A stretch of 48,344 nt of DNA from NCBI GenBank assembly GCA_900696685.1, contig CAADHA010000124.1:1-48344 (forward strand), in the 5' to 3' direction. Source of the stretch: an uncultured Planctomycetota bacterium (GTDB taxonomy: Bacteria; Planctomycetota; Phycisphaerae; Phycisphaerales; UBA5793). The stretch's first letter is position 1, and every line of letters starts with the position of its first letter. The notes under the pieces are model-generated. The model was not told the DNA's origin. It did no database searches and saw nothing but the letters and a program-made list of their open reading frames with translations. The translations under genes were made by a program, and so were the position numbers. Positions 13,358 through 21,899 of the stretch are shown here, in pieces.

Positions 13358-14521
13358 TCAGGTGGAAGGATCGCGGCGACGTCCGGGCCACTGTGCGGGG
13401 TAGGCGTACGTCGCGTGGCAGCCGTCGCACCTGGCCGGGCTGGCGGACCGGCTCTTCTCGTGGCAGCGCGTGCACTTGAACCCGGCGTGACTGCCCAGGA
13501 GCGGCACGCCCGTGATGCTGTGGTCGAAAGTCGCCGCGCTCAGGCCGCCGTGACAGCCGCGGCAGTTGCCGGAGGGAATCACGAACGCCTCGACACGCCC
13601 GTGGCACTTCACGCATGAGAGGTCCGAGTGGCTTGGCTCAAGGTTCCAGCCCGTGCGGGCGAGGTGATCGAACGCCGGCCGAGGACTCTGGTCGTGGCAG
13701 AAGCGGCACTGGTTCGCGGCGTGGCAGGTGCGGCAGGTGGACATGCTGTGGACGGGCCGGCGCGGCTTGAGTGTTCCGTCGTGGCAGGAAGCGCATGAGC
13801 CGCCCTGGTGGCAGTCCACGCATTGCAGATCGAAGGATCGCGCGTGATCCAGGTGTTGGAAACTCACGAGCGGCGCTGAAACGTTGCGCGTTTGATAGAC
13901 GTAGGCGGGATGCGGCTCGGTGCGGACAGGCGAGGGCAGAACCGGGTTCGAGGCGCCGAACGCAAGAGCGGGGACGGGGCGCGCGGCGAGTGCAACGCGC
14001 CCGGCCTGCTCCTGGTGGCAATAGCCGCAGCCGTTGGCGTGGCTCCAGTCGCGGTGACAGGCGAGGCACTGCCGGTGATACGCGCCCTTGAGGCTCGGAT
14101 GATCGAGCGTTCCGGCGGTGCGCTGGGGCGAGTGGCATGCGCGGCAGGGCTGCACCGAACCCTCTGTTGGCTCGAAGTGATGGCAGTTGACGCACCCCCC
14201 CTCGATCTCCGACATCGCCGCGTGAACTCGATGATCGAAAACAACGGGCTGGTAGAGTTCGGCGAGTTGGTCGATGAGTACGACGTCCGGCGCAGTGCCG
14301 GGCGCGGCCGGGGCGGCGTGTACGACGTCCCTCGAGCGAAAGAGGCGAATGTCCACGCGCGCATCGTCAGTTGACCGGGCGGCATCGTGGCAGGTCAGGC
14401 AGGACTCCTGAGAAGTCAGCGACGGCTGCGCCGCAGGCGGCACTGCCGTTCGCGCACCGAAAAGCAGCGCGAGTGCGCCTGTGGCCGTCAGGATCGAGAT
14501 GGTGATGAGCAGCCCTTTCAT
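13358..14521 (-). CDS. Periplasmic 13-heme c-type cytochrome
   Basis: A 387-residue protein with an N-terminal signal sequence (residues 1-22, ILTATGALALLFG). It has thirteen CxxCH motifs: CLTCH, CVNCH, CRACH, CLACH, CGYCH, CVDCH, CASCH, CRTCH, CRFCH, CVKCH, CRGCH, CTRCH and CDGCH. Extra His residues between motifs (for example FDHRVH, QHLDHA, FDHS) could be distal heme ligands, as in the NapC/cytochrome c7 and c3-type multiheme families. It should sit in the periplasm and take electrons from the adjacent NrfD/ferredoxin pair. Its ATG overlaps the NrfD stop by 4 bases, giving translational coupling. The final acceptor is unknown. Confidence 0.9.
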   Translation of the reverse strand: MKGLLITISILTATGALALLFGARTAVPPAAQPSLTSQESCLTCHDAARSTDDARVDIRLFRSRDVVHAAPAAPGTAPDVVLIDQLAELYQPVVFDHRVHAAMSEIEGGCVNCHHFEPTEGSVQPCRACHSPQRTAGTLDHPSLKGAYHRQCLACHRDWSHANGCGYCHQEQAGRVALAARPVPALAFGASNPVLPSPVRTEPHPAYVYQTRNVSAPLVSFQHLDHARSFDLQCVDCHQGGSCASCHDGTLKPRRPVHSMSTCRTCHAANQCRFCHDQSPRPAFDHLARTGWNLEPSHSDLSCVKCHGRVEAFVIPSGNCRGCHGGLSAATFDHSITGVPLLGSHAGFKCTRCHEKSRSASPARCDGCHATYAYPAQWPGRRRDPST

Positions 14522-15732
14522 GTCCGCGCCTCCTCGAGACGCTCGATGACGGGGAAGTTGAGGACGATGAAGCGGTAGATCAGGACGATCATCGCGATGA
14601 AGCCCGCCGTCACGGCGAACTCGGCGAACGCCGGGTAGTAACGCTCGCCTTCGATCGTCGGCGTATAGGCAAGGAGGAAGACGTTGAGGCGGTTGGCGAT
14701 CACGCCGAAGATCACGAGCGACGCGGCCGTCAACAGCCCGCGCGGCGAGTGCCGCAGGCGCTGGCGCATCAGGAGGGCGAAGGGCAGCACGACGCCCCCG
14801 ATGAACTCGAGCATGAACAGCCCCGCCGCCGGAGTGGGCTGCACGAGCGATCCGACCGCGCCGCGGTTCAGCAGGTCGATCACCTTCGCCGCGGCGTAGA
14901 TGCCCAGCAGGACCGGAATGAAGCTCGCCAGGCGGGCCAGAGCATCGATTTCAGGCTCGAGGCCCAGCGAGCGCGAGGCGAGCAGAGACTCGAAGATCAC
15001 CATGGAGAATCCGACGGCGAAGGCGGAAAGTAGAAAGAACATCGGCAGCATCGGCGACTGCCAGAGGGGGTGGAGTTTCGGGCCGGCAATCACCATGAGC
15101 GTGCCCAGCGACGACTGGTGCATGCACGAAAGGACCACGCCGAGGATGATGAAGACGGTCATCACGCGGCCGATGCCGGCGTCAAGCACGCGCAGCATGC
15201 GATCGACGCTGCGGTCAAGGCGCGCCAGCGGGCCCGGCAGGCGCACGCGGCCGATGAAGCGTTCGCACACGATGGGCAGGAACTCGATGTAAAGAACGGT
15301 GAGGTAGGTCATGACGCAGATCGCGACTTCGAAGAGAACCGAGTTGCCCTGCCACATCCAGGGGAGCATGACGTGCCACATTGCCCAGAAGCGGCCGAGG
15401 TCGGTCATCACCCCGAGGGCGACGAAGGTGTAGCCGATCATCGCCGTGAGCAGCGCCGGCCGCACGAGCGGATGGAACTGCTCGCGATGCAGGAGATGGG
15501 CGACAAACGCGGTGGTGAAGCCGCCCGCGGCCAGCGCGACGCCGCAGGCCACGTCGATGGCGATCCACAGCCCCCACGGGTAGGCATCGCTGAGATTGGT
15601 CACAGCGCCAAGACCGACGACGAAGCGGGCGGCAAGGGCCGCAGCGCCGATGATCGCCACCGCCGTCACGACCCACACGCCGGGCGTGAAGAAGCGCGGT
15701 CTGGTGCGTGGAATGGAGAGGTTGCCGTTCAT
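14518..15732 (-). CDS. NrfD/PsrC/HybB-type integral membrane quinone-interacting subunit
   Basis: A 404-residue protein with about ten hydrophobic helices. It belongs to the NrfD/HybB superfamily, whose members exchange electrons between the quinone pool and an iron-sulfur partner. WGLWIAIDVACGVALAAGGF and the following helix pattern are typical of HybB/NrfD. Its start overlaps the upstream ferredoxin stop by 4 bases, and its stop overlaps the downstream cytochrome start by 4 bases. The three are therefore made as one set. I cannot distinguish quinol oxidation from quinone reduction from the sequence. The composition resembles Geobacter Cbc-type ferredoxin/NrfD/cytochrome complexes. Confidence 0.88.
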   Translation of the reverse strand: MNGNLSIPRTRPRFFTPGVWVVTAVAIIGAAALAARFVVGLGAVTNLSDAYPWGLWIAIDVACGVALAAGGFTTAFVAHLLHREQFHPLVRPALLTAMIGYTFVALGVMTDLGRFWAMWHVMLPWMWQGNSVLFEVAICVMTYLTVLYIEFLPIVCERFIGRVRLPGPLARLDRSVDRMLRVLDAGIGRVMTVFIILGVVLSCMHQSSLGTLMVIAGPKLHPLWQSPMLPMFFLLSAFAVGFSMVIFESLLASRSLGLEPEIDALARLASFIPVLLGIYAAAKVIDLLNRGAVGSLVQPTPAAGLFMLEFIGGVVLPFALLMRQRLRHSPRGLLTAASLVIFGVIANRLNVFLLAYTPTIEGERYYPAFAEFAVTAGFIAMIVLIYRFIVLNFPVIERLEEART

Positions 15733-20481: not shown

Positions 20482-20525
20482 GCGGACGCGGGCGGATTCG
20501 ACCGGCCCGAAGCACAAGAGAGGAC

Positions 20526-21899
20526 ATGCCCCTCATGGCCAGAGACAAACACAGCATCCTCGTCGTGGACGATGAGTTCTCCATCCGCGACTCGCTCGAG
20601 AACTGGTTCCGCAAGGACGGTTACGACGTGCGTGCAGTCGAGAACGCCGCCGACGCCCTTCGCGCGATCCAGGAGCGGCCGGCCGACGTGGCCGTCGTGG
20701 ACATCAAGATGCCGGGGATGGACGGCCTGGAACTCCAGCGCCGCCTCCACGAGTCCAACCCGCGCACCGCGGTGATCATGATCACCGCTTTCGCCACCGT
20801 CGAGACGGCCGTGCAGGCGCTCAAGCAGGGCGCCTTCGACTACGTGACCAAGCCGATCGATCCCGATGAACTCAGTCACCTCGTCCGCCGCGCCATCGAG
20901 CAGCGCCGCCTCGAAGACGAGAACCTCCAACTGCGAGAGACGATCGACGAACTCGTCGCCGTGGACACGATCGTCGGCGAAAGCCCCGCGATCCGCAAGG
21001 TGATGGAACTCATCCAGCACGTCGCCCCCACGGACGTCACCGTGCTCATCCAGGGCGAGAGCGGCACGGGCAAGGAACTCAGCGCGCGGGCGATCCACGT
21101 CAACAGCCGCCGCCGCTATCTGCCCATCATCGCCGTCAACTGCGGCGCCATTCCAGAGACACTGCTCGAAAGCGAGTTGTTCGGCCACGAGAAGGGCGCC
21201 TTCACCGGCGCCGACCGCAAACGCCGCGGCAAGATCGAGATGGCGCAGGGAGGCACTCTCTTCCTCGACGAAGTCGGGGCCATCAGCCCCAGGATGCAGG
21301 TCGAACTGCTTCGCGCGCTCGAGACTCACGAGTTTCACCGCGTCGGCGGCATGGAGAGCGTCCACGTGGACTTCCGCGTCATCTGCGCCACCAATGAGAA
21401 CCTTGAAAAGGCCGTGCAGGAGGGCCGCTTCCGCGAAGACTTCTACTACCGCATCAACGTCTTCACCATCGAGGCGCCGCCGCTGCGGGTGCGGCGGTGC
21501 GACATCCCCCTTCTCGCCGCGCACTTCCTCCACCGCTTCGCCCGGCAGATGGACAAACACATCACGGAGATCAGCCCCGAGGCGATGAAGATGCTCGTCG
21601 AGTACGACTGGCCCGGCAACGTGCGCGAACTGTCCAACGCCATCGAACGGGCGATGGTGGTCGGCAAGCCGCCGGCGATACGCGTCGAAGATTTTCCGCT
21701 CCGCAGCGCGCGAGGCCCTGCCGGCGCCGCGGGCGGCACCGAGGCTCTCGAACAGGTCGAGCGACAACACATCGCCGAAGTCCTCGGCCGCGCCGATTGG
21801 AACATCTCCCGGGCGGCGAGAATTCTCGAAATCGACCGCGTCACCGTCTACAACAAGATCAGGAAGTACGGGCTGCGTCCGCCTGCCGCCCGCCCGTGA
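20526..21899 (+). CDS. NtrC-family sigma-54-dependent response regulator
   Basis: A 457-residue regulator. The receiver domain has acidic residues D15-D16, phospho-acceptor D59 (VVDIKMPGMDG) and KPID. The AAA+ domain has Walker A GESGTGKE (from residue 177), the sigma-54 contact loop GAFTGA (224-229) and Walker B GGTLFLDEVG. It also has the arginine-finger region FREDFYYRINV and the DWPGNVREL motif. A Fis-type helix-turn-helix ends the protein (ISRAARILEIDRVTVYNKIRK). Starts at 20526 or 20535 are both possible, after AAGAGAGG at 20516-20523; an in-frame ATG at 20478 overlaps the kinase stop. It is the likely activator of the two sigma-54 promoters upstream of the cytochrome locus. Confidence 0.93.
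   Translation: MPLMARDKHSILVVDDEFSIRDSLENWFRKDGYDVRAVENAADALRAIQERPADVAVVDIKMPGMDGLELQRRLHESNPRTAVIMITAFATVETAVQALKQGAFDYVTKPIDPDELSHLVRRAIEQRRLEDENLQLRETIDELVAVDTIVGESPAIRKVMELIQHVAPTDVTVLIQGESGTGKELSARAIHVNSRRRYLPIIAVNCGAIPETLLESELFGHEKGAFTGADRKRRGKIEMAQGGTLFLDEVGAISPRMQVELLRALETHEFHRVGGMESVHVDFRVICATNENLEKAVQEGRFREDFYYRINVFTIEAPPLRVRRCDIPLLAAHFLHRFARQMDKHITEISPEAMKMLVEYDWPGNVRELSNAIERAMVVGKPPAIRVEDFPLRSARGPAGAAGGTEALEQVERQHIAEVLGRADWNISRAARILEIDRVTVYNKIRKYGLRPPAARP

What the first reader, a model, noticed from the sequence alone, without database searches (positions are those of the whole stretch)
13358..21899. Heme-sensing, sigma-54-switched multiheme redox locus with two degenerate H-proteins
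Seen directly: a kinase with periplasmic CxxCH and C-x4-CH motifs next to an NtrC-type activator. Divergent from them is a set of two H-protein-like genes, a Tat ferredoxin, a NrfD-type subunit and a 13-heme cytochrome, with two good sigma-54 promoters upstream. Ferredoxin, NrfD and cytochrome overlap by 4 bases each. Known: such NrfD/ferredoxin/cytochrome sets carry electrons to or from quinone, and heme-motif kinases respond to redox or gases. Inferred: the kinase senses the electron flow or acceptor state and turns on the complex, and the two H-like proteins support its assembly or regulation. I know of no described system with this exact set.
Basis: partly seen in the sequence, partly recalled or inferred. 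Interest (0 to 1): 0.8.

Follow-up and report, generated by a model that had tools for sequence, protein, structure and literature searches.

The report
Heme-kinase-controlled respiratory complex with H-like proteins
A bacterial gene cluster pairs an electron-carrying membrane complex with a heme-bearing sensor kinase and two small proteins that look like a metabolic lipoate carrier but have lost the lipoate site; related clusters recur in several bacterial phyla, which suggests an overlooked way of controlling respiration.

Summary
Seven genes are there: 13-heme cytochrome, NrfD (HybB/HmcC-like), Tat ferredoxin (HybA/HmcB-like), two H-protein-like genes, a kinase with CxxCH and C-x4-CH motifs, and an NtrC-type activator. 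Overlaps and two sigma-54-like sites are real (shuffle p 0.006 and 0.002). In sensor-centred samples from two other phyla, 21 of 24 NrfD units have an H-like gene within 4.5 kb; 20 arbitrary stretches have no NrfD, H-like, sensor or archaemetzincin. The search profiles came from such loci, so subtypes are favoured. The window's H-like proteins lack the lipoyl site; a new tail recurs in relatives, and one kind is membrane-anchored with the H domain predicted in the cytoplasm. In three Acidobacteriota loci (two nearly identical) the anchored H-like protein carries a receiver domain, so the H domain may be an end point of the phosphorelay at the complex. An archaemetzincin is a frequent extra member, missing here. 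Literature searches found no description. Function is inferred; nothing was tested at the bench.

The parts
13358..14521 (-). 13-heme c-type cytochrome (c3/c7/Hmc-like), presumably periplasmic
   Evidence: ORF; Cytochrom_CIII, Cytochrome_C7; 13 CxxCH
14518..15732 (-). NrfD-family integral membrane subunit, HybB/HmcC-like
   Evidence: PF03916 67.7 bits; NCBIfam PRK10881 (HybB type) 374.8 bits, HmcC 266.7 bits, both below the equivalog cut-offs
15729..16712 (-). Tat-type ferredoxin subunit, HybA/HmcB-like
   Evidence: Fer4 families; HmcB 349.5 bits, HybA 240 bits, below cut-offs; Tat motif visible in sequence
16767..17537 (-). H2: membrane-anchored H-protein-like protein, two N-terminal TM segments, H domain predicted in the cytoplasm, no lipoyl lysine
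   Evidence: GCV_H 63.8 bits for the longer ORF; start from sequence; topology; residue at lipoyl position D
17585..17599 (-). sigma-54-like promoter upstream of H2
   Evidence: 1 mismatch; shuffle p 0.006, 46 bases before ATG
17721..18467 (-). H1: H-protein-like protein without TM segment, N-terminal four-cysteine motif and C-terminal DGG, no lipoyl lysine
   Evidence: GCV_H 32.2 bits for the longer ORF; AlphaFold model pLDDT 82 matches H-proteins in PDB, best E 2.2e-10; residue at lipoyl position C; no TM
18574..18588 (-). sigma-54-like promoter upstream of H1
   Evidence: 2 mismatches; shuffle p 0.002, 105 bases before ATG
18757..20481 (+). sensor histidine kinase with periplasmic Cache-type domain carrying CxxCH and C-x4-CHxH
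   Evidence: HAMP, HisKA, HATPase_c; motifs; model pLDDT 87, Cache-type fold
20478..21899 (+). NtrC-type sigma-54 activator response regulator
   Evidence: Response_reg, Sigma54_activat 239.9 bits, HTH_8; GAFTGA

Best explanation
The divergent operon builds a quinone-linked inner-membrane electron-transfer complex: NrfD/HybB-like membrane subunit, exported HybA/HmcB-like ferredoxin and a 13-heme cytochrome in place of a catalytic subunit (shown: gene identities; inferred: quinone coupling; direction unknown). A kinase whose periplasmic Cache-type domain should bind one or two c-type hemes reads the redox state or a heme ligand in the same compartment and phosphorylates an NtrC-type activator, which turns on the operon from two sigma-54 promoters (inferred from domains, sites and gene order). 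The two H-protein-like proteins are not lipoyl carriers. They are cytoplasmic accessory and regulatory subunits, one anchored in the membrane near NrfD, which couple the two-component signal to the complex itself. Basis for that last step: recurrent linkage, loss of the lipoyl site, a new conserved tail, and relatives in which the membrane-anchored H-like protein carries a receiver domain next to the same kinase.
For: H-centred scan, 43 loci: NrfD in 30, ferredoxin in 29, NtrC-type regulator in 37, heme sensor in 25, archaemetzincin in 31. Sensor-centred samples: Acidobacteriota 20 loci (20 of 37 places, mostly the best-scoring): regulator 20, NrfD 15, H-like 14, archaemetzincin 14; Desulfobacterota 20 loci (20 of 62 places, spread by hand): regulator 15, H-like, NrfD and archaemetzincin 8 each. 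21 of 24 NrfD units there have an H-like gene within 4.5 kb. Control: 20 arbitrary 19-kb stretches, nearly all from the same genomes, have NrfD 0, H-like 0, sensor 0, archaemetzincin 0, a regulator-type hit in 6. NrfD matches number 24 in six genomes of about 27 Mb, roughly a 2% chance per 20 kb. Receiver-H proteins with TM anchor in L155, L159, L161 beside NrfD, ferredoxin and the heme kinase. CxxCH in 25 of 25 untruncated sensors, a second C-x4-CH in 23, a shorter-spaced one in the other two. Lipoyl motif lost. H domain predicted cytoplasmic in 16 of 16 anchored forms tested, 16 being a hand-picked part. Sigma-54-like site at p<=0.05 upstream of the first H in 9 of 18 HybAB-like relatives.
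Against: No expression, binding or activity data. The H profile and the sensor profiles were built from loci that already had NrfD or H, so subtypes tied to such loci are favoured. In the first, broader look with the window's H2, only 5 of 20 fetched loci had NrfD and the sensor. In the window's own phylum 8 of 18 sensor kinases have an H-like gene near (one weak) and 11 of 18 NrfD (three weak or cut). Some loci have complex and kinase without a linked H-like gene (L134, L150, L151, L185), although the genomes of L150 and L151 carry H-like proteins elsewhere. H-like proteins also occur with other kinases and no NrfD, mostly in Desulfobacterales (13 of 43 loci without NrfD). The ACIII-like relatives show no sigma-54 site upstream of the first H (0 of 9 at p<=0.05). 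The window's H proteins are only 25-27% identical to the reference relative L036, and its complex differs (13-heme cytochrome, no archaemetzincin).
Confidence: 0.53

Rival explanations
1. The H-like proteins are assembly or structural subunits of the NrfD complex only, with no part in signalling; the kinase/activator pair acts on transcription alone.
For: The membrane-anchored H-like gene sits beside ferredoxin and NrfD in most NrfD units examined (53 of 56 have an H-like gene within 4.5 kb, 32 of these loci having been found through H), and H+ferredoxin+NrfD units without a kinase within the stretch exist (L188, L190).
Against: Receiver-H proteins beside the kinase; H-like genes with kinase, regulator and often archaemetzincin but no NrfD.
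Confidence: 0.3
2. The H-like proteins still carry a cofactor (lipoate at another residue, or a metal at the four cysteines of H1) and shuttle electrons or groups to the complex.
For: H fold kept; the four-cysteine motif recurs in H1 relatives; H domains fused to 2Fe-2S/4Fe-4S domains in L038, L044, L052.
Against: Of the 78 H-like rows aligned, only L039 keeps a lysine in a lipoyl-like setting (by eye); in this window the ferredoxin and cytochrome look exported while the H domains are predicted cytoplasmic.
Confidence: 0.1
3. The kinase is a nitric-oxide sensor, and the complex is part of a nitrosative-stress or denitrification response rather than a reader of electron flow.
For: A c-heme Cache domain fused to a signalling module binds NO (PMC12889525; abstract, passages and Discussion read); the sensor profile matches the heme-sensor chains 3b42 and 3b47.
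Against: The window's domain has no PF11845 match (1 of 26 members, E 0.0095) and has a second conserved cysteine-histidine motif; 'second heme', 'diheme' and 'two hemes' do not occur in that preprint, so its result may not carry over.
Confidence: 0.3
4. The H-like genes are chance neighbours, decayed glycine-cleavage H paralogues.
For: The window's copies are diverged and each has its own promoter-like site.
Against: Association across phyla in H-centred and sensor-centred searches against an arbitrary-stretch control; conserved new tail (57 of 65); genuine GcvH is encoded elsewhere in the genome.
Confidence: 0.03

Closest known systems
Hydrogenase-2 HybA/HybB module and Desulfovibrio Hmc (HmcB/HmcC)
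   Same: Ferredoxin and NrfD-type subunits of this subgroup, a multiheme cytochrome partner in Hmc (NCBIfam hits; QrcD/HybB/HmcC relationship from passages of PMC6303296)
   Different: Scores below the curated cut-offs; none of the operon's five genes is a hydrogenase subunit; H-like proteins, heme kinase and NtrC-type activator are added
Ferredoxin/NrfD unit with a multiheme cytochrome in place of the molybdenum subunit (described for the MBNT15 genome)
   Same: Same three redox subunits (passages of PMC9386147)
   Different: The passages seen name no H-like protein, kinase or activator with it
Alternative complex III (ACIII)
   Same: Loci such as L089 have a pentaheme cytochrome, MopB-like protein, ferredoxin and NrfD next to two H-like genes, and the same kind of kinase and activator
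   Different: The window has no pentaheme ActA-like or MopB-like gene in the operon
Geobacter heme-c sensor domains (3b42, 3b47; GSU0935/GSU0582, the pairing of entry and gene recalled) and sCache_heme (DUF3365)
   Same: Sequence-profile match to 3b42/3b47, CxxCH, Cache-type fold
   Different: Second conserved C-x4-CHxH motif; window member matched by neither PF11845 nor PF21563 at E 0.1; 3b42 and 3b47 are not among the 50 Foldseek rows shown
Glycine cleavage H protein and lipoate-binding LbpA
   Same: H-protein fold; H-type proteins tied to a redox system are known for LbpA (PMC6067878, start of abstract in search listings)
   Different: No lipoyl lysine motif; N-terminal anchor or cysteine motif and C-terminal DGG-type tail added

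Membership tests
Glycine cleavage H protein (GcvH) | H-protein fold | tested here: met
   Pfam GCV_H above cut-off for both; H1 model matches H-protein structures
Glycine cleavage H protein (GcvH) | lipoylated lysine in the ESxKA motif | tested here: not met
   D in H2, C in H1
Glycine cleavage H protein (GcvH) | NCBIfam equivalog score | tested here: not met
   58.2 and 30.7 bits, cut-off 115.85; another gene of the genome scores 135.3 bits on GCV_H
HybAB / HmcBC | ferredoxin and NrfD subunits of this subgroup | tested here: met
   best NCBIfam hits HmcB, HybA, HybB type, HmcC
HybAB / HmcBC | curated equivalog cut-offs | tested here: not met
   349.5 of 420, 240 of 263, 374.8 of 450, 266.7 of 550 bits
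HybAB / HmcBC | hydrogenase subunits (Hyb) or hexadecaheme cytochrome (Hmc) in the operon | tested here: not met
   the operon's five genes are identified otherwise; cytochrome has 13 hemes and 56.9 bits on HmcA, cut-off 400
sCache_heme (DUF3365/Tll0287) | Cache-type fold with CxxCH | tested here: met
   model and Foldseek hits to WalK, KinD, DctB, CitA sensor domains; CQSCH
sCache_heme (DUF3365/Tll0287) | match to PF11845 | tested here: not met
   window member none at E 0.1; 1 of 26 members, best E 0.0095
sCache_heme (DUF3365/Tll0287) | covalent heme c | not testable with these tools
   motif only
NtrC-type sigma-54 activator | receiver, sigma-54 AAA+ domain with GAFTGA, Fis-type HTH | tested here: met
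sigma-54-dependent promoter | transcription start at the site | not testable with these tools
   sequence only
Alternative complex III | pentaheme ActA and MopB-like ActB in the operon | tested here: not met
   the operon's five genes are identified otherwise

The most novel reading that the evidence does not exclude
An undescribed, portable control module found in several bacterial phyla: a kinase with a two-motif c-heme Cache sensor governs NrfD-type respiratory complexes twice, by sigma-54 transcription and directly at the membrane through non-lipoylated H-protein adaptors that are phosphorelay end points (receiver-H proteins being the one-piece form), often with an archaemetzincin protease as a further control element. 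It would give both the degenerate H-proteins and bacterial archaemetzincins a first functional setting.
Probability: 0.35. Interest if true: 0.82.

Novelty: new variant of a known kind. Interest (0 to 1): 0.64.

Why it matters
Electron-transfer complexes of the NrfD group are widespread, but how they are switched is, as far as I recall, little known. A recurrent set of heme sensor, sigma-54 activator and H-like adaptors gives a testable route from periplasmic redox state to complex activity, shows an H-protein fold apparently used without lipoate, and offers a genomic setting for archaemetzincin, a protease whose role in bacteria is, to my knowledge (recalled), unknown.

Tried and rejected
Chance-neighbour and decayed-paralogue readings were rejected by the co-occurrence results and the arbitrary-stretch control. 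Membership in GcvH, HybAB/Hmc and ACIII was tested and not met for defining features. An archaemetzincin was looked for in the window's genome and not found (no M54 match at E 0.001 in a 94% complete assembly). The pattern scan of the whole window for sigma-54 sites was uninformative by itself; local shuffles were used instead (27 of 43 loci given; left out were the 13 without NrfD and L090, L093, L095, whose first H gene was not found or was cut off). Cysteine geometry in the H1 model could not be measured: no model coordinates are in the Python box.

Controls: one search also prints 0 of 10 and 0 of 15 for two sets of loci. I do not use these as controls, because the 15 are what remained of 20 H-hit loci after the 5 with NrfD were set aside, and the 10 archaemetzincin loci left out hits already known to lie at kinase loci. 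One search replaces them. The Tat tally misses some motifs (e.g. L068) and is not used. One search read H1 in a wrong frame (corrected); one H row and one kinase row of the profiles were also in a wrong frame and were corrected; tallies quoted come, and the locus descriptions agree with them. L159 and L161 are nearly identical, so the three receiver-H loci are about two independent cases. L054, L055, L059 and L061 are the named records of loci first found as unnamed L036, L037, L034 and L035.

Literature: ten searches of open-licence PMC papers only. NrfD + glycine cleavage system H + histidine kinase + multiheme cytochrome: 0 papers; archaemetzincin + histidine kinase: 0; NrfD + glycine cleavage system: 2, of which one was opened for passages (the terms stand in separate sections) and one not. 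One search asked for three of five terms and showed 10 of 949, none of the 10 with archaemetzincin. PMC3831638 was opened for outline and abstract only and not used.
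Full report
What is there. On the minus strand run H1 (17721-18467), H2 (16767-17537), a Tat-type ferredoxin (15729-16712), an NrfD subunit (14518-15732) and a 13-heme cytochrome (13358-14521; 13 CxxCH). Ferredoxin/NrfD and NrfD/cytochrome overlap by 4 bases. Divergent on the plus strand are a histidine kinase (18757-20481) and an NtrC-type activator (20478-21899), also overlapping by 4. Curated models place ferredoxin and NrfD nearest HmcB/HybA and HybB/HmcC but below the equivalog cut-offs. 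The genome (G000, 4.3 Mb, 94% complete) has a separate genuine GcvH (135.3 bits), one sigma-54 gene and cytochrome c assembly genes. Its phylum is most likely Planctomycetota: the contigs found in same-phylum genomes G063, G072, G108 and G189 have the same lengths as four records titled Planctomycetota or Planctomycetaceae (inference).

Promoters. The best sigma-54-like site upstream of H2 (17585-17599, minus) scores 19.5 of 20.5 and that of H1 (18574-18588, minus) 19.0; of 500 dinucleotide shuffles a fraction 0.006 and 0.002 reach this (weights recalled). Upstream of the kinase there is none (p 0.85). Among relatives, 9 of 18 loci of the H-ferredoxin-NrfD kind have a site at p<=0.05 (one of them, L069, 281 bases from the start codon), and 0 of 9 of the ACIII-like kind.

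Co-occurrence, H-centred. A first search of 199 genomes of the phylum with H2 gave many H-type hits; of 20 loci fetched, 5 had NrfD and the heme sensor and 15 had neither. The H proteins of four of those five were then used to scan named genomes, which gave 43 loci with record titles of about a dozen phyla or candidate phyla: Planctomycetota, Acidobacteria, Krumholzibacteriia, Eisenbacteria, KSB1, Caldithrix, Nitrospinae, B38, Zixibacteriota, Desulfobacterales and other Deltaproteobacteria, Ignavibacteria/Bacteroidetes, Myxococcales. With profiles built here, 30 of 43 carry NrfD, 29 ferredoxin, 37 an NtrC-type regulator, 25 the heme sensor, 31 an archaemetzincin, and 18 two or more H-like genes; 23 have NrfD, sensor and regulator together. 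The 13 without NrfD have cysteine-motif H-like proteins, mostly in Desulfobacterales and Zixibacteriota.

Co-occurrence, sensor-centred. The sensor alignment (itself made from such loci) finds 18 kinases in 13 of 199 genomes of the window's phylum. Their loci hold a regulator in 18 of 18 (one weak), NrfD in 11 (three weak or cut by a contig end), an H-like gene in 8 (one weak) and archaemetzincin in 10. In Acidobacteriota (36 of 149 genomes) I took 20 of 37 places, mostly the best-scoring: regulator 20, NrfD 15, H-like 14, archaemetzincin 14. In Desulfobacterota (40 of 148 genomes) 20 of 62 places spread by hand: regulator 15, and 8 each for H-like, NrfD and archaemetzincin (phylum names inferred from the seed records). 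Of 24 NrfD units in these two sets, 21 have an H-like gene within 4.5 kb. Two of the three exceptions lie in genomes that carry H-like proteins elsewhere, one of them in each genome beside another ferredoxin-NrfD pair; the third was not followed.

Control. Twenty arbitrary 19-kb stretches, 18 of them from genomes of the sensor-centred samples and two from the phylum sample, have NrfD 0, H-like 0, sensor 0, archaemetzincin 0, ferredoxin 1 (weak) and a regulator-type hit in 6. NrfD matches number 24 in six module-bearing genomes of about 27 Mb, about a 2% chance per 20 kb.

The H-like proteins. At the lipoyl position the three true H-proteins read ESVK; the window's H2 has D and H1 has C, and of 78 H-like rows only L039 keeps a lysine in a lipoyl-like setting (K stands in that column in 9 of 81 rows, three of them true H-proteins). 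A C-terminal DGG-type tail is found in 57 of 65 and not in the three true H-proteins. Two kinds recur: one with an N-terminal four-cysteine motif (as H1) and one with a membrane anchor (as H2); some ACIII-like loci have both on one protein. In 16 of 16 anchored forms tested, a hand-picked part, positive charges place the H domain in the cytoplasm. The H1 model (pLDDT 82) matches H-protein structures, best E 2.2e-10. In L155, L159 and L161 (Acidobacteriota sample) the anchored H-like protein has a receiver domain between anchor and H domain, beside the same kind of kinase, NrfD and ferredoxin and without a separate NtrC-type regulator in the stretch seen. Other receiver-H proteins occur in L038, L043 and L047. 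This makes the H domain a plausible output of the phosphorelay.

The sensor. Of 26 sensor hits in the 43 loci, 25 are untruncated; all 25 have CxxCH, 23 a second C-x4-CH, L056 a C-x3-CH and L058 a second CxxCH. In the alignment with the window's sensor the cysteines of both motifs are invariant. The profile matches 3b42 (E 9.2e-6) and 3b47; Pfam PF21563 matches 25 of 26 members, not the window's. The model (pLDDT 87) resembles Cache-type sensor domains of WalK, KinD, DctB and CitA; 3b42 and 3b47 are not among the 50 rows shown. A 2026 preprint reports that a c-heme Cache domain fused to a signalling module binds NO while a stand-alone one looks redox-related (PMC12889525; abstract, passages and Discussion read). 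Whether the window's sensor reads redox state or NO is open.

Mechanism proposed. Heme sensor in the periplasm, kinase, NtrC-type activator, sigma-54 promoters, complex genes: this arm rests on domain identity and site statistics. H-like proteins as cytoplasmic regulatory or accessory subunits at the NrfD subunit: this arm rests on linkage, topology, loss of the lipoyl site and the receiver-H proteins. Direction of electron flow is unknown; HybB and HmcC are argued to be likely electrogenic quinone-linked relatives of QrcD (passages of PMC6303296).

Known or new. The redox subunits are a known kind (HybAB/Hmc; a ferredoxin-NrfD-multiheme set is mentioned for MBNT15, passages of PMC9386147). 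I found no description of H-like proteins with NrfD complexes, of this kinase with them, or of archaemetzincin with kinases (open-licence papers only). I file it as a new variant of a known kind, with a bolder reading left open.

Noticed in passing
L054-L096, L147-L186: An archaemetzincin (peptidase M54) gene lies near the kinase/regulator pair in many loci (31 of 43, 14 of 20, 8 of 20), often between or directly after them; no match in the window's genome.
   Followed up: partly
L085-L096: ACIII-like operons (pentaheme cytochrome, MopB-like protein, ferredoxin, NrfD; domains checked in L089 only) with H-like genes before and after, and in most of them the same kind of heme kinase and regulator.
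   Followed up: partly
L038:9201-10568: Receiver, H domain and HdrC-like 4Fe-4S domain in one protein, near an NtrC-type regulator and a kinase.
   Followed up: partly
L044:5769-7085, L052:9765-11042 (domains checked); L053:7777-9063, L076, L079 (by eye): Fer2/Fer4 (NuoG-like) N-terminus fused to a cysteine motif and an H domain.
   Followed up: no
L052:5125-5964: Receiver domain followed by two copies of the four-cysteine motif without an H domain, so the motif may be a separate module.
   Followed up: no
L073-L084 (mostly Desulfobacterales and Zixibacteriota): Cysteine-motif H-like proteins, mostly with a kinase without the heme sensor (PAS kinase in L077 and L082), an NtrC-type regulator and often archaemetzincin, but no NrfD.
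   Followed up: partly
window 11072-13184: A second two-component pair that looks like PhoB/PhoR (by eye) lies downstream of the cytochrome gene, on the other strand.
   Followed up: no
window 21933-22868: A gene that looks like KDO-8-phosphate synthase (by eye) follows the activator on the other strand.
   Followed up: no
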